Below are positions 11,347 through 21,699 of a DNA stretch of 32,336 nt, one piece after another. Made by a program: the position numbers and the translations under genes. The stretch's first letter is position 1. Every line of letters begins with the position of its first letter. Below the pieces are notes generated by a model, which searched no databases, had not been told where the DNA came from, and saw only the letters and a list, made by a program, of their open reading frames with translations. The DNA is from Flavisolibacter sp. (GTDB lineage: Bacteria > Bacteroidota > Bacteroidia > Chitinophagales > Chitinophagaceae): assembly GCA_028288675.1 (NCBI GenBank), contig JAQBNG010000092.1:1-32336 (forward strand), in the 5' to 3' direction.

Positions 11347-12972
11347 TTAATCCTTAATACAACGTACTGAAAGCCCACTAGCCTTATAAGGTTCACCTTT
11401 GTAAACTTCCTTTGATGCAATGTCGTTGTATAAGGCCCGATTCCAGGCGCCCTCTGCCTGTGAAGATGAAGAACTCCACCATCCACCATAATAGCCCAAT
11501 TGGTTGAATATACCAGTGTTAGAACGGAATCCACCCGGAAGACCTGCAAACCCACTTTCATTGCTGCCGCTAACATTTGTAGTCCATCCATAAGGTGCTT
11601 TCATCTTTTTTACTGCAAGGTCTTCCTGCAAAAAATTTGTCAGCGTTGTCCATTCGCCATCAGAAGGAATATGCCATCCTTTTGAGGCTAGCCCTCTGCT
11701 GTCCTGTACAGCATACCAGTTGTACAACTTCCCATAGTCCTCATTTTTAGGATCGTTATTATAGTAACACCAGGCGGGTCTTTTTTCTACCCCTGCTTTT
11801 TTCCATGCTTCTGCCGTCCTTACTTCAGGAATTATATCTCCATTAATAAAAGTGCTTACGTTCAGGTTTTCTGACATCCATATTTGGTTATTAATTTTTA
11901 TGGCATGATAAGTTCCGCCCCCTTCTCTAGGGTCAGTGAACTTGCTTTTGACAATATTTTTTGTAACCTGTGGCTGTTCTGTTTCTGTGGAAGGAGTTGT
12001 GGTTGCGACCTGGCTTTCTGTTTTAGTAGCAGAAGTGCAAAATTCTTTTATAAGACTCATGGCTGAAGTATCGCCCAATGTTGCTGCCTTTTTAAAATCT
12101 TCGCAACCACCAACCGCATTAAACGCCATAATTTTTGTAAGTCCACGGCTTATGTATGCGTCAGCCAATGTGGGATCAATTTCTATTGCTTTTGTATAAT
12201 CGGCAATGGAGTTAGGATAGTCTTTGAATTGTTGCCTTGCATCTGCCCGAAGCACATATAATTTTTTATTCTTTGGATTGAAAGCGATTGCAGTACTATA
12301 CTCACCTATAGCTCCGGCGTAATCCTTCTTCTCAATTTTTTTAAATCCCTCGTCGATAAGGGCTTCTTCTCTATCTTTTTTATGCTCTGTTTCCGATTGA
12401 AGGTTAGCTCCTTTCGCAACGTTATCCGCGTTTTTTAAGTCTAAAGAAGATCCGGAAAAATCACGCAGTTCCAACTTTACCACTCCCCGTATTGCATAAG
12501 CATGTTCGTGGCGTGGGTTAAGTTCAATGGCTTTGTTCAGGTCTGCAAGAGCCCCGGTAAATTCTTTAAGAAAATACTTAGCCCTGCCCCGATAATAGTA
12601 ATTATCAGCGTCCTGTGTGTCGTATTCAATTGCTTTATCTAAGTCCTGAATAGCCGCTGCATATTCTTTCAGTGCCACCCTGATCATACCACGCATAGAA
12701 TAGGCAGTTTTGTATTGAGGGTTAAGTTCAATAGCCTTATTTAAATCCTGGAGAGCTCCTAAGTCTTCTTTCTGCATAGCTTTTATTGAGCCCCGGACAA
12801 CATACTTTGCCGCAGAAGGATTAAGTTCTATTGATTTAGTGATGTCTTGAATTGCACCCTTTTCATCATTTGCTTTGTGCTTCTCCAAACCCCGGTCGAA
12901 GTATTCCTCTGCCGTTTGTGCATTAGCTGAACCAATAAGCATCACAGCGAAAAGAAGTAAAATGTATTTCAT
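11347..12972 (-). CDS. Exported TPR protein with C-terminal FISUMP domain
   Basis: A 541-residue protein with a signal peptide (ending GSANAQT, about 19 residues). Seven or eight tetratricopeptide repeats follow in two blocks, about 22-188 and 205-305, each with the DLNKAIELNP type of helix turn. A threonine/glutamate-rich linker (316-345) leads to a domain at about 345-541 that I recognise as the Fibrobacter succinogenes major paralogous (FISUMP) domain: WMSENLNVSTF, WCYYNNDP, YGKLYNWYAV, GWHIPSDGEWTTL, GFAGLPGGFRS, WWSSSS and the ending GLSVRCIKD. TPRs mediate protein contacts; FISUMP has a C-type-lectin-like character and is found on surface proteins, but its ligand is unknown. It lies 168 bases behind the unknown secreted protein gene and may share its transcript. 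Confidence 0.92.
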   Translation of the reverse strand: MKYILLLFAVMLIGSANAQTAEEYFDRGLEKHKANDEKGAIQDITKSIELNPSAAKYVVRGSIKAMQKEDLGALQDLNKAIELNPQYKTAYSMRGMIRVALKEYAAAIQDLDKAIEYDTQDADNYYYRGRAKYFLKEFTGALADLNKAIELNPRHEHAYAIRGVVKLELRDFSGSSLDLKNADNVAKGANLQSETEHKKDREEALIDEGFKKIEKKDYAGAIGEYSTAIAFNPKNKKLYVLRADARQQFKDYPNSIADYTKAIEIDPTLADAYISRGLTKIMAFNAVGGCEDFKKAATLGDTSAMSLIKEFCTSATKTESQVATTTPSTETEQPQVTKNIVKSKFTDPREGGGTYHAIKINNQIWMSENLNVSTFINGDIIPEVRTAEAWKKAGVEKRPAWCYYNNDPKNEDYGKLYNWYAVQDSRGLASKGWHIPSDGEWTTLTNFLQEDLAVKKMKAPYGWTTNVSGSNESGFAGLPGGFRSNTGIFNQLGYYGGWWSSSSSQAEGAWNRALYNDIASKEVYKGEPYKASGLSVRCIKD

Positions 12973-13140: not shown

Positions 13141-14751
13141 TTACTGAAACACATATTTAGACAGCCATAGTTTTTTATAATCTTCGTCACTTCCAATAAA
13201 CACAAGACTGTTTTCTGCCGTATTAAAAATTGGTAAAAAACTTTTGGAGGTATAAAATTTCTCATCGCCCAACACACTGAAGCTGCTTACCGAAGTGCCT
13301 TCCACATCAAGCTTTGCGATGCGTGGAAAATAGCGTCCGTAATAAGTGGCGTTGCCGACATAGGCTGCCACAAAGCCATCATAGCCTTTAAAGCCTTTTA
13401 CTTCCATAATTACCCAGTACAATGATTTGCCATCTTTGGAAGGAACAAACATTTGCGTAATAGGAAATATCTCACTCTTCTTATCCGTATTCATTTTTTC
13501 TACACCGTACTGCGCTTTCAATTGTCCTGCTTTATCAAAATGAAAACATACAATGTCTTCGTATGTTTTTACCGGGTTACCCAGTCCAAGGTTTGTTTTG
13601 CCGGTAAGCTGGCCCGCAACAAGGTACTCACCCGAAGGTGTTATTCTGAAGTTAGATACTAAAAACCTGCGGCCTTTGTAAGCATCGGCACCTTTATCTT
13701 GTGGTGATGTTTTAAACTTTGATTTAAACTCGCTTACAGGTGCTGCTGTAGCAAAATCGAGCTGGCTGCCGGTGAATTTCAATAAATGGAAACTTTCCAT
13801 TTTTTCATCCGCTTTTTTAGCCCAGTAAAAGTCCTGTTTGTTTTCGCCTTCTTTATAACATGGATTACTTATAGTACCCGCATATTCGTCAAACACTTCC
13901 TCATAGGAATCTTTCGATTTTGTAGAGGTAGCGCAGAAGAACACCGATCCGCCTTCTTCCTGTGCATCTACAATCAGCAGGTTGTTGGAAGGGCTTTTAA
14001 AAGTTACTTTATTCTTTACATCGCCGGTAGTGCCATATCTTAAATACGTGTATGCAGAAAGATCGGGCTCACCTTTTTTTGGAGCAAATACAAGAACAAC
14101 GTCTCCATTATCTAGCTGTGAAGAAAACACCAGGGATTGTGATCCGCTTATGTCAACGGGTTTTGATGTAATGTCAAGATCAGCATTCACACCAAGTATA
14201 AAAAAATCTCTTCCTTTTTTATGAACGTCACTTTCAGTAGCACCTACTACGAAAAGTTTTTCGTCGGTACCCGTAAAGGCTGCATAGCCGTAATACTTTC
14301 CATTTTCGTTGCGGGGTTTTATAGTTTCTGAAGTAAGAATTTTAGTGATAAAGTAGCGTTGCTTTTTATAATCCCATGACTTAGTAGCTGAAAATTTGCT
14401 GAACCGCAGCTTCATACTTAATAAATCAAAGCCACCGCAGCCACCAACCGATGCATCGAAGCCGGATACGGTCTTATCGGGTTTATCTTCTTTTTTCTCT
14501 TTTGGTTCCGAGACTTCCTCGCTTTTTATAAATTTTATGTTGTTATCAAACTGGTAGTTCTCGTAAAATATTTCATTCTTTTTTTTATCGCCGGGAATTT
14601 TATACGTAATTGTATAAACGCCATCCGAAGAAGCGGTATTTGATATAAACCCCTTGCCTGCTTTTTTAGAAAGCTCCTGGATGGCTTCCTGTGCGCCGCT
14701 TTGTAAAATAAAAAAACACAGGGTTACTGAAAGTGCAAATGCTCGTGTCAT
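13141..14751 (-). CDS. Secreted protein of unknown function
   Basis: I do not recognise this 536-residue protein. It has a signal peptide (MTRAFALSVTLCFFILQSGAQ). A lysine/glutamate/proline-rich segment (EPKEKKEDKPDK) is followed by a glycine/cysteine motif VGGCGGFDLLSMKLRF and then about 400 residues of beta-rich sequence in which phrases such as EKLFVVGATESD, GDVVLVFAPKKG, EYLVAGQLTG and SLVFIGSDEDYKKLWLSKY recur at blade-like intervals. A beta-propeller is plausible but is inference. It is preceded by one copy of the 16-base element shared with the response regulator gene, so it is a candidate target of the neighbouring two-component system. No transmembrane segment or T9SS tail is visible. 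Confidence 0.82.
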   Translation of the reverse strand: MTRAFALSVTLCFFILQSGAQEAIQELSKKAGKGFISNTASSDGVYTITYKIPGDKKKNEIFYENYQFDNNIKFIKSEEVSEPKEKKEDKPDKTVSGFDASVGGCGGFDLLSMKLRFSKFSATKSWDYKKQRYFITKILTSETIKPRNENGKYYGYAAFTGTDEKLFVVGATESDVHKKGRDFFILGVNADLDITSKPVDISGSQSLVFSSQLDNGDVVLVFAPKKGEPDLSAYTYLRYGTTGDVKNKVTFKSPSNNLLIVDAQEEGGSVFFCATSTKSKDSYEEVFDEYAGTISNPCYKEGENKQDFYWAKKADEKMESFHLLKFTGSQLDFATAAPVSEFKSKFKTSPQDKGADAYKGRRFLVSNFRITPSGEYLVAGQLTGKTNLGLGNPVKTYEDIVCFHFDKAGQLKAQYGVEKMNTDKKSEIFPITQMFVPSKDGKSLYWVIMEVKGFKGYDGFVAAYVGNATYYGRYFPRIAKLDVEGTSVSSFSVLGDEKFYTSKSFLPIFNTAENSLVFIGSDEDYKKLWLSKYVFQ

Positions 14752-15139
14752 AATTAGTTTTGTTTAAGAAGATGAATGTAGCCGTGGCACCCATAATAAA
14801 AAGTGTGAAAATAGTAGTAGGGTTGATTGATGGATCAGTTGATCTGGATAATCTGTGAAGGATATTTAAAAGAAATGGGTTGAAAGAAAATTAAAGAGCC
14901 AATTCTATCATTTACCAGGGGCGCTGCTGCAAGAAATTTTCCTTTAGTAAAAGGCAGGTGGTGGTAATGTCGTCCGGTTTGATACTACCGTCCTATGTGC
15001 TGCTAACTGTGACACTATGATTTTACTGATCCAGGTAATTATTTCATTTCGCTTTATAAAAGAATGTATAAAAAATTGAGGACTAACAACGGTTGTTTTG
15101 ATTAAAATTTCTGCTGAGAATAAGTATAAACGAGGGTTA
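14752..15139. other. 388-bp gap between the WG-repeat gene and the unknown secreted protein gene
   Basis: The part next to 14751 holds the candidate promoter and shared element listed separately. Further right is GATCAGTTGATC (14834-14845) and a weak AACAAC-G-GTTGTT inverted repeat (15085-15097) that could end the WG-repeat transcript. No open frame with protein-like character and no RNA gene is visible. Confidence 0.5.
14773..14819 (-). promoter_or_regulatory. Candidate regulated promoter, copy A of the shared element
   Basis: Read on the minus strand: TACTACTATTTTCACA (14819-14804), 23 nt, then TACATTCA (14780-14773), a 4-of-6 match to TAnnTTTG. The ATG at 14751 is 21 bases further on. Over 23 bases (14797-14819) it matches copy B at 22 positions. 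Confidence 0.65.
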
Positions 15140-17155
15140 TTATTGGTTTACTCGTTTACCTGTGTTATCTAAGTATAACGACTCGCCCTTGAATACAACT
15201 TTTACTTTTCCGTTTTCAAAACCATATACATCATCATAAACCGGCGCAATTATTTCTTCTCCTTTGGTATTTATATATCCCCACTTATTTCCTATTCTTA
15301 CAGAACAAAGGCCATCCTTAAAAGTAGCAACACGGTCATATTTCAAAGCAATGATTGCTTTGCCGGTTTTATCAGCATAGCCCCATTTGCCATTTAATTT
15401 TATAGCAGCTAATCCATCAGTAAAAGAAAGTATCTCATCATACATTATTGGTACAACCACTTTGCCCTTGCTGTCAATTAGTCCCCACTTGCCTTTCATC
15501 ATAACATCTACACACCCCTCCTTAAACCGTAAGCTGGATTTGTCATAGATTAATGGTATTGAAACTATTCCGCTTTTATTAATAAAGCCGAATTTTTTCC
15601 CGAGTAAAATACCGGCTAATCCATCTTTAAAATCTACTGCATAGTCATAAGTCAATGGTATTACTTCTTTACCACTTTCATTAATGAAGCCGTACTTATA
15701 ATTTTTACTTACAACTGCCAGGCCCTGATAAAAATTTTCTTTAGTGCTATAGGCAGTGTTGTTTTGTGCAATGGGTTTTGCGGGCACAATACCTTTTTTG
15801 TTAGTGGTTAGTTTATAAGTTGTAGCAGGCTTTCTCACTTCTTCAGGCGCCAACCCAGGTATCTCAGAAATAACATCCATTTCATTAACCTGTTTCCCCG
15901 TTCTGTCAAAAAATAAATACCTGCCTTCTAATTGCACTCCTCCTTTTCCTTTTTCAAACCTGCCACCATAATCATAGATAGCAGGAACCATTTGATTGCC
16001 GGTTTTATCTATAAAGCCCCATTTGGCATACCTATTCCCTCCCGGTCCATTTATTCTTACACTTGCTATCCCTTCATTAAAATCTAATGCGTCATCATAA
16101 ATAAAGGGAATTATTTCGTTTCCCTTTTTATCCACATAGCCATACTTTCCGTTTAATTGTACAGCCGCCATTCCTTCTGAGAAACTTTTGGCATGCTGGT
16201 ATTTTGAAGCGATAAGTTCTTTAGCGGTTTTATCTATAAACCCCCATTTGCTATTTAGTTTTACAGGAGCAAGTCCTTCTTTAAAATCATTAACACCATC
16301 GTATGCCGCAGCTATAATTTGATTGCCTGTTTTATCAATGAAACCCCATTTAACGAATTCCTGAACACCTGCCATGCCATCGGAGTAATCGCGAACAGAA
16401 TTATAACTAAATGGAATTATTTGATTGCCTGTTTTATCAATAAAGCCCCATTTGCCTTTTCCATAATTACTGGTTGATGTTTTTATTTGTACGGCGGATA
16501 AGCCTTCGGAGAAACCATTAGCATAACCATATTGGGGATGGATGATTTCATTCCCGGCTTTATCTATAAATCCAAATCCATTATTGGTAAGTACTACAGA
16601 CATTCCTTCTTTAAAGTCATCCATAGTATTATAAAAGCCAGGAGTAACTTCCTTACCTTCTTTATCAATAAGAAACGTATGCAGATAGGTTGTAACCCTT
16701 GCTGTACCGTTTTTAAAAGCATAGACCCAATCATATATCATGGGGATTACAACTTCACCTTTTTCATTTGCATATCCATACTTGCTTTCTCCGTTGTAGT
16801 TTTTAAATCCAATAATAGCACGTCCTTCAAATAGTTTTTGTTTAAACGTATAAGCTGGAGCAACAATTTTGACGACAGGGTTTTCTTTTGCCGCAAGTTC
16901 CCTCTGAGTTGCTCTTTGCTCACGTAGCCGCTGCTGTTTTTCGCGTTCCGATTCATAAATCGCGGTAGTGGACGAAGGTGTTGGCTTATAAGTATTTTGC
17001 CTGTTCCTAGCCTCCTCTGCACGTCTATCATAAGAGGATTTTACGTTGCCGTTTTTATCGTATGCGGAAACATACTGCGCCCCTGCTTTTGTGAGGGATA
17101 ACAAACAAATTGAAATCATAAACAACCCAAAAACCGGAATAGTGCGATGTTTCAT
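15140..17155 (-). CDS. Exported WG-repeat protein
   Basis: A 671-residue protein made almost wholly of WG repeats, about 23-35 residues each, with the core WGFIDKTGNQIIPxxYDxxxxFxEGLAxV. I count about 13 full and two partial copies: a first block at about 107-425 and a second at about 475-671, separated by a 50-residue linker without repeats. It begins with a signal peptide (residues 1-27, ending TKAGAQ), then a basic/glutamine-rich segment (66-92) that may be a short helix. WG repeats form beta-solenoid or propeller-like scaffolds of largely unknown binding function. Several repeats are also near-identical in DNA: a 23-base stretch at 16317-16339 recurs at 16419-16441. It starts 57 bases after the small exported protein gene and probably shares its transcript. 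Confidence 0.93.
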   Translation of the reverse strand: MKHRTIPVFGLFMISICLLSLTKAGAQYVSAYDKNGNVKSSYDRRAEEARNRQNTYKPTPSSTTAIYESEREKQQRLREQRATQRELAAKENPVVKIVAPAYTFKQKLFEGRAIIGFKNYNGESKYGYANEKGEVVIPMIYDWVYAFKNGTARVTTYLHTFLIDKEGKEVTPGFYNTMDDFKEGMSVVLTNNGFGFIDKAGNEIIHPQYGYANGFSEGLSAVQIKTSTSNYGKGKWGFIDKTGNQIIPFSYNSVRDYSDGMAGVQEFVKWGFIDKTGNQIIAAAYDGVNDFKEGLAPVKLNSKWGFIDKTAKELIASKYQHAKSFSEGMAAVQLNGKYGYVDKKGNEIIPFIYDDALDFNEGIASVRINGPGGNRYAKWGFIDKTGNQMVPAIYDYGGRFEKGKGGVQLEGRYLFFDRTGKQVNEMDVISEIPGLAPEEVRKPATTYKLTTNKKGIVPAKPIAQNNTAYSTKENFYQGLAVVSKNYKYGFINESGKEVIPLTYDYAVDFKDGLAGILLGKKFGFINKSGIVSIPLIYDKSSLRFKEGCVDVMMKGKWGLIDSKGKVVVPIMYDEILSFTDGLAAIKLNGKWGYADKTGKAIIALKYDRVATFKDGLCSVRIGNKWGYINTKGEEIIAPVYDDVYGFENGKVKVVFKGESLYLDNTGKRVNQ

Positions 17156-17212
17156 ATGAGTGCCTTTTTTGTTAAACTATTAATCATTTGAATACTATTA
17201 AAACATGCATAT

Positions 17213-17716
17213 TTAAAGGAAACCAATAGTCATTCTTCCTTCACCTTTTTTTGCATCCAGCATATAAGAACCCACCTTAATACCTTGAAAGAACAATGAT
17301 TGAATATCCTCATTTGCTGTACTTTTTTCTTTATCGGTTTCAATTTTAAATGGTGCACGAACTGATTTGAATGTTCCTGAAGACATTTGAAGTTTTTTTT
17401 CATCACCACTGTAAATAGCGATGTAATAAGCGGTTCCATTTGGCTTAACCACGATGTATTGCTTACTCGCCAACATCATGTCGCAATCTTTTACATTATA
17501 TATCAATGTGCCATCCTCCTGCTTTAGGAGTAAACTACTTTTCACTGCTGCAAAGTCTACCATAATGCCGCAAAGCTTTACTATGTTATTTTCCATTGCT
17601 ACTAAAGCTTTTTCAATTTCTTCGGTAGCTGCGCTGCTTTGTGCATGCACCGTAGATACAAACGAGGCACTAAGCGTAAATGCGATTATAAGTAATGCAA
17701 GATTTTTTTTCATCAT
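17213..17716 (-). CDS. Small exported protein of unknown function
   Basis: A 167-residue protein starting with a clear signal peptide (MMKKNLALLIIAF..STVHAQ). The mature part has a helical beginning (EEIEKALVAMENNIVKLCGIMVDFAAVKSS) and a beta-rich remainder (TLIYNVKDCDMMLASKQYIVVKPNGTAYYIAIY) ending GEGRMTIGFL. I do not recognise a family. The frame is open back to 17926, but the extra 70 codons have no signal-like or family features and cover the candidate promoter, so I take one of the paired ATGs at 17716/17713. It lies between the response regulator gene and the WG-repeat gene, all in the same direction, and has copy B of the shared element about 115 bases upstream. Confidence 0.78.
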   Translation of the reverse strand: MMKKNLALLIIAFTLSASFVSTVHAQSSAATEEIEKALVAMENNIVKLCGIMVDFAAVKSSLLLKQEDGTLIYNVKDCDMMLASKQYIVVKPNGTAYYIAIYSGDEKKLQMSSGTFKSVRAPFKIETDKEKSTANEDIQSLFFQGIKVGSYMLDAKKGEGRMTIGFL

Positions 17717-17806
17717 GGTTTGTTTTAAAATGTGTTGTTTCCCAGTTGTACCTGAATAACTGACGGAATAAGACAGGCGAAGCAAGAACTGCTTATTTAT
17801 CAGTTG

Positions 17807-17853
17807 TAAATGTGCGTTATCCTTGATTGATAAAAAGTGTGAAAAAAGTAGTA
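17807..17853 (-). promoter_or_regulatory. Candidate regulated promoter, copy B of the shared element
   Basis: Minus-strand reading: TACTACTTTTTTCACA (17853-17838), 23 nt, then CACATTTA (17814-17807), a 4-of-6 match to TAnnTTTG. The next gene starts at 17716, so the leader would be about 90 bases. It is downstream of the response regulator stop (17945). Confidence 0.6.
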
Positions 17854-17944
17854 TCGGGATGGTTAATTCGCGTAATAGATACCGGCCTTTGAGCTGATTA
17901 GTAAATAGTAAGAAAGGGAGTTGCAATGTTTCGGCTAATTAATA

Positions 17945-18577
17945 TCACCGTAATCCAGCTTTCCGCAACGCTTCCTTTTTATTACCAGCATGAAGCTTCT
18001 CATAGATATTGCGGATGTGTGTGCGTACGGTTTCTATGGAGATAAATAAATTTTGTGCGATCTCTTTGTAGCTAAAGCCTTTTGATAACCATTGCAGCAC
18101 TTCTTTTTCCCTGTCTGACAGGGTTTCTTTTGCATCTACATAACTTACATCCTGCTGAAATGCGTTGACTACTTTCCTGGCTATCTCGTTGCTCATCGGA
18201 CTGCCGCCTTTTCGTAGGTCGCGAAGGGCATCTATTAATTTAACGGCTTCCGTATTTTTTAAAATATATCCTGTGGCGCCGGCTTTCAGGGCTTTAAAAA
18301 CCTTATCGGCATCATCATAAGCGCTTAATACCATCAACTGAATTTCGGGACGTAAGGGTTTGAGCCAGGCAATAAAATCAATGCCTGATTTGCCGGGCAA
18401 CTGAATATCGGTGAGCACCAGCTCAATCTCATTTCCTAACCCATTTTCAAAATATAGAAAGGCTTCCTCGGCAGAGGCAAAGCTTGCCTGTAGATCAAAT
18501 TCGCCTGAACCCGCTATAAGTGCGGTTAAGTAATTACGAATCTTGTCATCATCCTCTATAATAATAATCGGGGTCAT
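17945..18577 (-). CDS. NarL/FixJ-type response regulator (receiver + LuxR helix-turn-helix)
   Basis: A 210-residue DNA-binding response regulator. The receiver has the acidic pocket IEDDDK (residues 7-12), the phospho-acceptor Asp57 in VLTDIQLPGKSG, the switch serine in MVLSAYDD and the lysine in GYILKNTEA. The output domain is a LuxR/GerE helix-turn-helix at about 148-208 (LSDREKEVLQWLSKGFSYKE, then IAQNLFISIETVRTHIRNIY). The open frame begins with TTG at 18580, but the ATG at 18577 is the better start. The kinase gene ends 59 bases upstream, and that gap contains copy C of the shared element, which suggests that the regulator has its own promoter, perhaps autoregulated. It is the likely partner of the adjacent kinase. 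Confidence 0.95.
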   Translation of the reverse strand: MTPIIIIEDDDKIRNYLTALIAGSGEFDLQASFASAEEAFLYFENGLGNEIELVLTDIQLPGKSGIDFIAWLKPLRPEIQLMVLSAYDDADKVFKALKAGATGYILKNTEAVKLIDALRDLRKGGSPMSNEIARKVVNAFQQDVSYVDAKETLSDREKEVLQWLSKGFSYKEIAQNLFISIETVRTHIRNIYEKLHAGNKKEALRKAGLR

Positions 18578-18583
18578 CAAAAA

Positions 18584-18630
18584 CGAAGATAGCTTATAGC
18601 TGTTTTTTTATTGATGTGAAAAAAGTAGTA
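18584..18630 (-). promoter_or_regulatory. Candidate regulated promoter, copy C of the shared element
   Basis: Minus-strand reading: TACTACTTTTTTCACA (18630-18615), 23 nt, then TATCTTCG (18591-18584), a 5-of-6 match to TAnnTTTG. Only 6 bases separate it from the regulator ATG at 18577, so the transcript would be nearly leaderless. It lies in the 59-base gap after the kinase stop. Confidence 0.65.
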
Positions 18631-18636
18631 AGGCAT

Positions 18637-21600
18637 TTAAAGGGGAAGGCTATAGTTTACAGAAGTTCCTTCCTCAAGCTGTATCCATTCAATTCCGCCA
18701 CCAATATCGTCCATTCGTTTTTTCATATTTGATAAACCATTGTGCCCGGCTTTAACGCTTTTTGTAATGATCCAGCTACCATTATCAGTAACAGTAAAAC
18801 AAAATTTGTCTTCTGTAATTAAAAGCTTTAAGTATATGTCAGTAGCACCGGAATGTTTCATTGCATTGTTCAACGCTTCCCTTGTTACCAGGTACAAATT
18901 CCTGCGTTCTGCATTGCTAAGCTTACAATAAGGAACCGTTTCCGGAAAACATATAGTGAACCTAACATCAAGCGATTCGAAAATTTGTTGCGACTGTTCC
19001 CTGGTATAAGCCAGCAGGTTTTCAAGTGTATCATTCTGAGGGTTCAATGCCCAAATTATTTCGCTGATTGTTTGTACAAGACGCCGCGCCGAAGTAGCAA
19101 TTACTTTTATATCTTTTTTTAATTCTGTAGCGTCTTTAAACTGCGTTTGAATTAACTCACTTAGCAGAGCGATATGCGTTATGCCGCTGCCAATTTCATC
19201 ATGCATATCTGCGCTTATCCGGTTGCGTTCAGCATTAACCGCCACCTGTTTTTCCAGTAAGCGCAACCTTCTTTTCGCTTTTAGCTGCGATATGTTATAA
19301 GTGATAAGAACAATTGTAAGTAATAAAAGCAGCGCCATTGTAGTAATAAACCAGATGCGTTTCCAGAAAGGCGATTGAATAAAAATAATAACCTGCTCTT
19401 CGGTACTCCATATTCCATCAGCATTGGATACTTTGAGCTTTAAGGTGTAATTGCCCGGTGTAAGATTTGTATACCGGGCATTTTTATTTTTTGTAATAAC
19501 CGGGTTAGGATCCCATCCTTCCAGCATGTACTGCACCTTATTGGCTTCGGGCCTTGTATAATCAAGGGCAGCGAATGTAAAGTTTACACCATTTTTATCA
19601 TGGGGTAAAGTGATGGTGTGGTTGGTAAGAAAGCCCGCATCTTTTTGAAAAACAGCGCCGTTGATTTCAATCCGGTTTATGGCCGCTACAGGTTTTATAA
19701 CTTCTTTACTTATATAGCCTGGCTTAAACCAATTGAACCCCCTGATGCCACCGAAATAAAAGTTGCCACTGGTACTTTTATAAAAAGCCTGCGTGTTAAA
19801 CTCGTTGCTTTGCAATCCGTCCAGGTAAGAATAGTTTTCGGCCCTCCCTGTTTTTGTGTTCAGATAACTAAGCCCGCCATTGGTGCTTATCCACCTGTTT
19901 CCATCCACATCTTCAAGCGAACCATATACGTAGCTGTTTGCCAGTCCATCTTTTTCATTCCAAAGCTTATATTTTTCTGTAGCTGTGTTCAAATGAATCA
20001 ATCCTATACCGGTTGAAACCCATAGCCATGCCGCATTTTTTTCGTCTATTCTCACGCTACGCAGGTCGATGCCATTGAGTAAAGCAGACGACATTTCATA
20101 ACCTCGTATGCCAGGTTTCAATTTATATAATCCAAAGCCGGGAATAGTCGCATAAATGATTCCATCCGGCATTTCTACTACATCGGTTGTGAGTGTAGCA
20201 GAAAAAGGGTTATCGCTAAAATGAGTTCCTTCATACTCACCGTTTCTCCGCCTGCTTACTTTTACTAAACCTTGCATTGTTGCTGCCAGCAGGTCACCGT
20301 TCTTCAATTGAATCATCTTATAAACAAAAATATTTAAGTCCGGGTACAGCTTTAGAAATTTATGCAACGCAATGGTTTTAAATGTTCCGCTTTTTTCATC
20401 AAATAAAGAAATGCCTCCGCTGCTGCCTATCCACATATTGCCATCGCGGTCTTTTAAAATGCCGGCTACCATATTACCGGGCAAGCTGGCAGGGTTGTCT
20501 TTTTCGTAATGATAATTGAGGAGTATTTCGGTTTTAGGATCAAGGATATTTAAGCCGTTCGTTTGCGAACCAAACCAGATGCGTTCTTTTGCATCTTCAT
20601 AAAAACACTTTGTAAAGTAATCGTTGAGCACGGGGTAGTCGCCTTCCGATAACGGAAACAAATTAAACCGTGGTTGTTTCAAATCGAGTTTGGCAACACC
20701 ACCTCCATCAAGACCTATCCAAAGGTTCTGGCTCCGGTCAATATACAGGCAGGTAGTCAGGTCAAAAGGCAATGATTTTATTTTAGAATTATTATGATGA
20801 TATTTCTGGAACCGGTTATTTTGTTCATCATAATAAAACAATCCATTACCCCTGGCTGTCATCCAAAGCCTACCATAATTATCCCGCACACCATCCTGCG
20901 AATAGAACGAAACTTTGCGGTCGTTGATCATCTTCGGCACTGTATGACTTTTGCCAGTTTGCAGATCGTTATAAACAAGCCTGTCATCAAAAGCCTTAAC
21001 AATATATTTATCGCTGAAGAAAATGGCATGTGGCGGATCGCCTTTTAAGTGAACAGAATAAACGTGAGTGTATTTATTAAACGTCAGGTAAGGATCGTTC
21101 TTTGAAACCAGGCGTACCCAGATGTTTCCTGCATTGTCAACCGTATTATAAGTGAATAATAAAGTTGTTGTATTTGTAGGCACAGGAAACGGGTACTGAT
21201 GAAGGCTGCCTGAATAAATATTGAACTCAAAAATTCCTTTCACAACATTAAACAACCATAAGGAACCCGTGCTATCCAATGCAACAGGTAAAAAGCTAAC
21301 GTTCTCAAATTCGGCTTTAGTGAATGCCCGCACCTTCACTATGTTTTCTGTGTACACATCCCATTTATAAATGCCGCTTTCATTGCTGTACCAAATGTTG
21401 CCTTCGTTATCTGCGAAAATTTTGCCCCTTACAAAATTGTTGATGACATTATTTGCATTTTCACTTTTATACTTAAATCCACGAAGTTCGCTTCCATCAT
21501 AACGGCACAAGCCATCGGGAGTGCCAAACCACATATACCCTTTTTTATCCTGTGTAATACTGTAAACAGAACTGTGCGGCATACCATCATTAACACCAAG

Positions 21601-21699
21601 ATGTTCAAAGCGGGGAATGAGATTTTGTGAATTAACGGCTTGTGTGATAAACAACACAAGTGCAGTAAAGACGGTTAGTATCAATGTTTTGGCGGGCAA
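18637..21699 (-). CDS. Two-component-regulator-propeller sensor histidine kinase
   Basis: A 1020-residue membrane kinase. Order of parts: signal peptide (1-24), a large periplasmic sensor of regulator-propeller blades (repeated GYMWFGTPDGLCRYD, NLWIGLDGGGVAKLD, NMWIGSSGGISLFD phrases) up to about residue 670, a Y_Y_Y domain (YMLEGWDPNPVI, NLTPGNYTLKLKVSNADGIW), one membrane span near 775-800, a HisKA_3 dimerisation helix with phospho-acceptor His833 (ISADMHDEIGSGITHI) and a HATPase_c domain (N box REALNNAMKHSG, G2 box GHNGLSNMKKR). The G1 box reads TDNGSW, lacking the second glycine of the usual DxGxG. This is not the hybrid type: no receiver or AraC domain is fused, and the regulator is the next gene. 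The start is TTG at 21699; no in-frame ATG would keep the signal peptide. In Bacteroidota such kinases usually sense glycans or envelope signals. Confidence 0.95.
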   Translation of the reverse strand: MPAKTLILTVFTALVLFITQAVNSQNLIPRFEHLGVNDGMPHSSVYSITQDKKGYMWFGTPDGLCRYDGSELRGFKYKSENANNVINNFVRGKIFADNEGNIWYSNESGIYKWDVYTENIVKVRAFTKAEFENVSFLPVALDSTGSLWLFNVVKGIFEFNIYSGSLHQYPFPVPTNTTTLLFTYNTVDNAGNIWVRLVSKNDPYLTFNKYTHVYSVHLKGDPPHAIFFSDKYIVKAFDDRLVYNDLQTGKSHTVPKMINDRKVSFYSQDGVRDNYGRLWMTARGNGLFYYDEQNNRFQKYHHNNSKIKSLPFDLTTCLYIDRSQNLWIGLDGGGVAKLDLKQPRFNLFPLSEGDYPVLNDYFTKCFYEDAKERIWFGSQTNGLNILDPKTEILLNYHYEKDNPASLPGNMVAGILKDRDGNMWIGSSGGISLFDEKSGTFKTIALHKFLKLYPDLNIFVYKMIQLKNGDLLAATMQGLVKVSRRRNGEYEGTHFSDNPFSATLTTDVVEMPDGIIYATIPGFGLYKLKPGIRGYEMSSALLNGIDLRSVRIDEKNAAWLWVSTGIGLIHLNTATEKYKLWNEKDGLANSYVYGSLEDVDGNRWISTNGGLSYLNTKTGRAENYSYLDGLQSNEFNTQAFYKSTSGNFYFGGIRGFNWFKPGYISKEVIKPVAAINRIEINGAVFQKDAGFLTNHTITLPHDKNGVNFTFAALDYTRPEANKVQYMLEGWDPNPVITKNKNARYTNLTPGNYTLKLKVSNADGIWSTEEQVIIFIQSPFWKRIWFITTMALLLLLTIVLITYNISQLKAKRRLRLLEKQVAVNAERNRISADMHDEIGSGITHIALLSELIQTQFKDATELKKDIKVIATSARRLVQTISEIIWALNPQNDTLENLLAYTREQSQQIFESLDVRFTICFPETVPYCKLSNAERRNLYLVTREALNNAMKHSGATDIYLKLLITEDKFCFTVTDNGSWIITKSVKAGHNGLSNMKKRMDDIGGGIEWIQLEEGTSVNYSLPL

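What the first reader, a model, noticed from the sequence alone, without database searches (positions are those of the whole stretch)
14773..18630. Three copies of a 16-base element at fixed spacing: a candidate regulon around the propeller kinase
Seen directly: TACTACTTTTTTCACA (minus strand) lies at 18615-18630 and 17838-17853, with one mismatch at 14804-14819. Copies A and B agree at 22 of 23 bases (14797-14819 and 17831-17853). In each case exactly 23 nt separate the element from a sequence like the Bacteroidota -7 box: TATCTTCG (18584-18591), CACATTTA (17807-17814), TACATTCA (14773-14780). The genes downstream are the LuxR response regulator, a small exported protein (then the WG-repeat gene) and an unknown secreted protein (then the TPR-FISUMP gene). 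All are on one strand next to the cognate kinase. Inference: the element is an activator site (centred near -42) or an alternative -33 element, and the regulator controls its own gene and a set of exported repeat proteins. I do not know this motif from the literature.
Basis: partly seen in the sequence, partly recalled or inferred. Interest (0 to 1): 0.78.

Follow-up and report, generated by a model that had tools for sequence, protein, structure and literature searches.

The report
Regulator's own DNA docking site
The repeated 16-base element is most likely the DNA docking site of the neighbouring two-component regulator, set at a fixed distance before its own gene and before genes for exported proteins, and similar arrangements recur in other Bacteroidota.

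Summary
In the 4.74-Mb genome TACTACTNTTTTCACA occurs three times, all in this locus, each 23 nt before a -7-like box. The element recurs in Chitinophagaceae, Mucilaginibacter, Pedobacter and Cytophagales, mostly beside relatives of the LuxR/NarL-type regulator (RR) and propeller kinase. Starting from RR genes instead, TACYACT plus a box at 22 or 23 nt flanks the RR in 43 of 55 loci (0.125 expected from dinucleotide shuffles), on both sides in 21. Spacing is sharp: 15 at 22, 27 at 23, 0-2 at each other. In other families the site can be a perfect inverted repeat, TACTACT-NN-AGTAGTA, the NarL '7-2-7' layout; here its right half is degenerate. Best reading: the RR's operator, centred near -43, autoregulating the RR and switching on exported proteins (45 of 54 non-RR downstream genes look exported). 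Seven other NarL-type RRs of this genome lack it. Binding and activation are inferred, not shown. No description was found in an open-access library.

The parts
18615..18630 (-). Operator C, TACTACTTTTTTCACA, before the response regulator gene
18584..18591 (-). -7-like box TATCTTCG, 23 nt after operator C
17838..17853 (-). Operator B, TACTACTTTTTTCACA, before the 167-aa exported protein gene (then WG gene)
17807..17814 (-). -7-like box CACATTTA, 23 nt after operator B
14804..14819 (-). Operator A, TACTACTATTTTCACA, before the 536-aa exported protein gene (US)
14773..14780 (-). -7-like box TACATTCA, 23 nt after operator A
17945..18577 (-). NarL/FixJ (LuxR)-type response regulator, the inferred DNA-binding protein
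   Evidence: Response_reg and GerE; solved relatives VraR, ChrA, DevR, NarL
18637..21699 (-). Propeller histidine kinase (Reg_prop, Y_Y_Y, HisKA_3, HATPase_c), the inferred partner; start codon not settled
17213..17716 (-). 167-aa protein with signal-peptide-like N-terminus, no Pfam family
15140..17155 (-). WG-repeat protein, inferred to share the transcript of the 167-aa gene
   Evidence: 11 WG_beta_rep stretches
13141..14751 (-). US: 536-aa exported all-beta protein, recurrent target of the operator in relatives
11347..12972 (-). TPR-FISUMP protein, possibly on the US transcript
   Evidence: no operator of its own in the window

Best explanation
The element is the operator of the neighbouring NarL/FixJ-type response regulator: a 16-bp 7-2-7-like site with a nearly invariant left heptamer TACTACT and a variable right heptamer (TTTCACA here, AGTAGTA in its symmetric form in other families). 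It sits at about -51 to -36, just upstream of the -33 region of an ordinary housekeeping-sigma promoter. The propeller kinase senses an unknown signal and phosphorylates the regulator; a regulator dimer binds the three operators and helps RNA polymerase from a class-II-type position. This raises its own level and switches on exported proteins: the 167-aa protein plus WG-repeat protein, and US plus perhaps TPR-FISUMP. Shown by sequence: the elements, the fixed spacing, the conservation, the linkage to this regulator subfamily, and the exported character of targets. Inferred: binding, phosphorylation, activation rather than repression, operon extents, signal.
For: Exact copies only in this locus of the genome. 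Exact element in 22 of 394 family genomes (own included), 16 of the 24 relative places fetched lying beside an RR homologue. Named scan: RR or kinase homologue in 28 of 32 Bacteroidota stretches against 0 of 13 from other phyla; spacing 23 in 34 of 36 against 6 of 13 matches (my tally). RR-anchored loci: 43 of 55 with the site, 0.125 by shuffles, 2 on the opposite strand; spacing 22 or 23 in 42 of 51 TAnnTTY found at 12-33 nt. Palindromic forms in other clades, 7-2-7 sites of NarL near -44 (PMC4549865 and PMC7419079, passages). Seven other NarL-type RRs of the genome lack it. Recognition helix T[VI]RTH[IV]RN in 41 of 43 RRs with the site, 3 of 11 without.
Against: In the window the right half matches the left at only 2 of 7 positions, so the site is not visibly an inverted repeat here. 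TACTACT departs from the E. coli consensus TACYYMT at position 5. Twelve of 55 RR-anchored loci (one of them misread by my script, L106) show no site, three of them with the same recognition helix. The RR profile was built partly from element-bearing loci, and related loci are not independent. The class-wide generic pattern gave 24 matches against about 50 for its reversed control (my tally), so counts alone do not speak for it; 17 of the 24 lie beside an RR or kinase homologue. Copies A and B have weaker boxes. No binding or expression data.
Confidence: 0.78

Rival explanations
1. Same operator and same regulator, but it represses, at least at its own gene (negative autoregulation), or acts both ways.
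For: NarL itself represses at some promoters (PMC4549865, passages). In RR-anchored loci the 22-nt form is mostly before the RR gene, 16 of 18, against 22 of 46 for the 23-nt form, which could mean a different mode there.
Against: The site lies upstream of -33 and does not cover the -7 box; the same position is used by NarL for activation at ogt (-44.5; PMC7419079, passages).
Confidence: 0.14
2. The element is the -33 half of promoters read by an alternative (ECF-type) sigma factor, and the regulator is a passenger.
For: Fixed spacing to the box.
Against: The box is TAnnTTTG-like; the element lies upstream of -33; it is palindromic in other clades and follows the RR tree. A linked sigma gene was not searched for systematically.
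Confidence: 0.04
3. The operator belongs to another DNA-binding protein that co-occurs with this locus.
For: Three element-bearing Bacteroidota stretches of the named scan show no homologue of any of the six window proteins queried (L049, L053, L075).
Against: The RR is the gene most regularly beside the site, and the 7-2-7 form suits its family.
Confidence: 0.03
4. Chance or a dispersed repeat without function.
For: Copies A and B agree at 22 of 23 bases.
Against: Same element and spacing in many genera with different surroundings, beside the same RR.
Confidence: 0.01

Closest known systems
E. coli NarL/NarP 7-2-7 operators (e.g. ogt, yeaR)
   Same: 16-bp layout of two heptamers 2 bp apart in its symmetric form; heptamer beginning TAC; site just upstream of the -35/-33 region (ogt -44.5); NarL-type regulator and HisKA_3-type kinase.
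   Different: TACTACT instead of TACYYMT; degenerate right half in the window; Bacteroidota promoter; propeller sensor; targets are the regulator itself and exported proteins.
VraR/LiaR-type envelope-stress regulators
   Same: Closest solved structures by sequence are VraR; kinase part weakly resembles LiaS.
   Different: Only distant sequence similarity; no operator comparison was made; targets differ.
RcsB
   Same: NarL/FixJ regulator that binds DNA as an asymmetric dimer (PMC5829831, passages), a possible model for a half-degenerate site.
   Different: No specific link to RcsB in sequence or locus was tested.
Hybrid two-component systems (HTCS) of Bacteroides
   Same: Propeller plus Y_Y_Y type of sensor (recalled).
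   Different: HTCS hold kinase and regulator in one protein (PMC11253607, start of abstract) with an AraC-type domain (recalled); here the regulator is separate and LuxR/NarL-type.

Membership tests
NarL/FixJ response regulator | Receiver domain followed by a LuxR/GerE HTH | tested here: met
   PF00072 residues 4-118, PF00196 residues 152-206
NarL/FixJ response regulator | Phosphoacceptor Asp and conserved acidic pair and Lys | tested here: met
   E8, D9, D57 and K107 invariant in the 12-row alignment; roles recalled
NarL-type 7-2-7 operator | Two inverted heptamers 2 bp apart | tested here: inconclusive
   Window copies match at 2 of 7 (read directly); of 64 sites in RR-anchored loci, 3 match at 7 of 7 and 5 at 6 of 7
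NarL-type 7-2-7 operator | E. coli consensus heptamer TACYYMT | tested here: not met
   TACTACT has A at position 5; so it works like such a site, with its own heptamer
Class-II-type activator site | Fixed position just upstream of the -35/-33 element | tested here: met
   22 or 23 nt before the box, geometry only
Class-II-type activator site | Activation from a mapped start | not testable with these tools
   no transcript data
ECF sigma promoter | Non-housekeeping box and a linked sigma gene | tested here: inconclusive
   Box is TAnnTTTG-like, which speaks against it; no systematic search for a sigma gene
Bacteroides HTCS | Kinase and AraC-type regulator in one protein | tested here: not met
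   Kinase ends with HATPase_c; regulator is a separate GerE protein

The most novel reading that the evidence does not exclude
Bacteroidia share a two-mode switch: regulator promoters often carry a near-symmetric operator with 22-nt spacing and no -33 element, target promoters an asymmetric operator fused to a TTG -33 element with 23-nt spacing, so that one base pair of phase and one half-site set how each promoter is read, and the operator's right half changes clade by clade along the regulator tree.
Probability: 0.3. Interest if true: 0.65.

Novelty: new member of a known kind. Interest (0 to 1): 0.55.

Why it matters
Bacteroidota carry many propeller-kinase systems with LuxR-type regulators, and I found no described operator for them in the searches made. 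Here a regulator subfamily, its operator, its promoter geometry and its exported targets can be read from sequence in several families, giving a directly testable regulon and a candidate pairing of recognition helix (TVRTHIRN) and heptamer (TACYACT). It also places WG-repeat and FISUMP proteins and an unnamed exported family in a regulatory context.

Tried and rejected
Chance or composition: rejected by the genome count and shuffles. A general operator of all NarL-type RRs of this genome: rejected, none of 7 others (E <= 1e-15) carries it in the fetched flanks, up to 1.5 kb. A wider regulon in this genome: no convincing further site among 26 wider matches. Class-wide pattern counts as proof: rejected because the reversed control had more matches; only adjacency was used. 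A first classification of downstream genes used a wrong pattern length, redone. Function of US from its fold: only weak matches, query TM-scores 0.13-0.32 in the 50 rows shown, several of them propellers, so none is claimed. Literature: 0 papers hold the 16-mer; 38 hold TACTACTTTT, 20 listed, none with a title on Bacteroidota regulation; the listings showed no description of this operator.
Full report
OBSERVATION. The spacer is 23 nt each time. In the genome (4.74 Mb, 254 contigs, 99.8% complete) TACTACTNTTTTCACA occurs three times, all here; one mismatch adds one place, 6 nt before an ATG. Of 14 TACYACT in the window only these three have a good box at 21-24 nt.

GENES. Kinase 18637-21699: Reg_prop, Y_Y_Y, HisKA_3, HATPase_c. 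Regulator 17945-18577: receiver plus GerE. 15140-17155: WG repeats. 11347-12972: TPR plus Fib_succ_major (FISUMP). No Pfam family for 17213-17716 or 13141-14751. Solved relatives of the regulator by sequence include VraR, ChrA, DevR and NarL.

RELATIVES, ELEMENT-ANCHORED. TACTACTNTTTTCACA occurs in 4 of 18 genomes of the genus and 22 of 394 of the family, own genome included in both. Of the 24 relative places fetched in the family, 16 lie beside an RR homologue 45-86% identical to the window's, one beside a US homologue only, one beside a FISUMP match only, and 6 beside none of the six window proteins queried; the 6 places of the genus all lie beside the RR. In 33 non-redundant places (the window's three included) the box scores 5/6 or more at offset 23 in 20, and in 0-3 at each other offset from 10 to 39. 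In the named collection, TACTACTTTTTTCACA plus N22-24 plus TANNTT gave 45 stretches, 32 Bacteroidota by title and 13 of other phyla. By my tally, 28 of 32 hold an RR or kinase homologue against 0 of 13, and spacing is 23 in 34 of 36 matches (one each at 22 and 24) against 6 of 13 (three at 22, four at 24). The 13 serve as a chance control.

RELATIVES, REGULATOR-ANCHORED. A profile of 12 RRs (A1), 11 of them from element-bearing relatives and one from the window, was searched in 295 genomes of the class (44 with a match at 1e-65) and 294 of the family (53 at 1e-72). The 59 loci fetched, the best matches, were not chosen by the element; one is the window's own. 4 of 59 were not auto-oriented and dropped. 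In the other 55, TACYACT with a box of 5/6 or more at 22 or 23 nt lies 20-130 nt before the start of the RR match in 38, within 130 nt after its end in 26, either in 43, both in 21. Two hundred dinucleotide shuffles average 0.025, 0.1, 0.125 and 0; the opposite strand of the same windows gives 1, 1, 2 and 0. Of 77 TACYACT in these flanks, TAnnTTY follows at 22 nt in 15, at 23 nt in 27, and at each other spacing from 12 to 33 in 0-2.

KIND OF SITE. On the RR tree (54 rows, quick method) the left heptamer stays TACYACT while the right half differs by clade: TTTCACA-like in the window's clade, often AATCACA in a second clade of the family, and AGTAGTA, AGTGGTA or ATGTGA-like in others. Some sites are perfect inverted repeats (TACTACTTTAGTAGTA, TACTACTAAAGTAGTA). 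NarL prefers inverted heptamers 2 bp apart (PMC4549865, passages), heptamer TACYYMT (PMC4886647, passage), for instance at -44.5 in ogt (PMC7419079, passages). TACTACT differs from TACYYMT at position 5. In F. psychrophilum the TAnnTTTG box lies at -12 to -5 (PMC9723704, passage), which puts these operators at -51 to -36 or -50 to -35.

TWO PROMOTER FORMS. The 46 distinct sites with 23-nt spacing mostly continue TT(G) after the operator (T 40, T 38, G 23), in line with the -33 TTTG element (PMC7366714, passage); the 18 with 22-nt spacing do not. The 22-nt form is before the RR in 16 and after it in 2; the 23-nt form in 22 and 24. Related sequences are not independent, and the window's copies have TC or CT there: a lead, not a result.

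SPECIFICITY. The 7 other NarL-type RRs found in the genome at 1e-15 have no such site in the flanks fetched. T[VI]RTH[IV]RN occurs in 41 of 43 RRs with the operator and 3 of 11 without (Fisher 6e-6, inflated by kinship: four of the 11 come from one genus).

TARGETS. Of 103 operator-plus-box places gathered from element-anchored and RR-anchored loci together, 42 precede an RR, 54 another gene, and 7 had no ORF found; 45 of the 54 have a signal-peptide-like N-terminus by a simple hydrophobicity rule, against 72 of 146 background ORFs, some of which may be spurious. Clusters include US homologues (9), a lipoprotein family, BamB-like PQQ propellers, proteins with a type IX secretion tail and WG proteins. 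An operator lies upstream of the US homologue in 9 of 10 relative loci scanned, two of which are one locus fetched twice; in the tenth (L103) none was found in the 350 nt before the match. The US model is all-beta with moderate confidence (pLDDT 73, pTM 0.74).

LIMITS. No binding or expression data. The class-wide pattern search had more reversed-pattern than forward matches (about 50 against 24), so pattern counts alone are no evidence; 17 of the 24 lie beside an RR or kinase homologue. Papers were seen as listings, starts of abstracts or passages. That the operator is undescribed rests, in an open-access library.

Noticed in passing
13141-14751 (-): Exported 536-aa protein with no Pfam or NCBIfam family, predicted all-beta with weak matches to solved structures that include propellers, conserved next to this system in relatives.
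   Followed up: partly
L037 (around G043:C1:1885954): An operator copy far from that genome's RR precedes a 161-aa exported protein and then a FISUMP gene, hinting at an unlinked regulon member; its box TATTTTGT is weak.
   Followed up: partly
L049, L052, L061: In Mucilaginibacter and a related MAG the operator precedes an 82-aa protein beginning MNILV, without signal peptide; in L052 and L061 a kinase homologue is divergent. L040 looks alike on reading.
   Followed up: no
G000:C101:1868-1883 (L004): TATTACTATTTTCACA 6 nt before an ATG of an exported-looking protein, beside what looks on reading like a threonyl-tRNA synthetase gene; no fitting box, probably chance.
   Followed up: no
L185 (G300:C29:3839-4342): Truncated RR homologue with one internal TGA, perhaps a decayed copy or an assembly error.
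   Followed up: no
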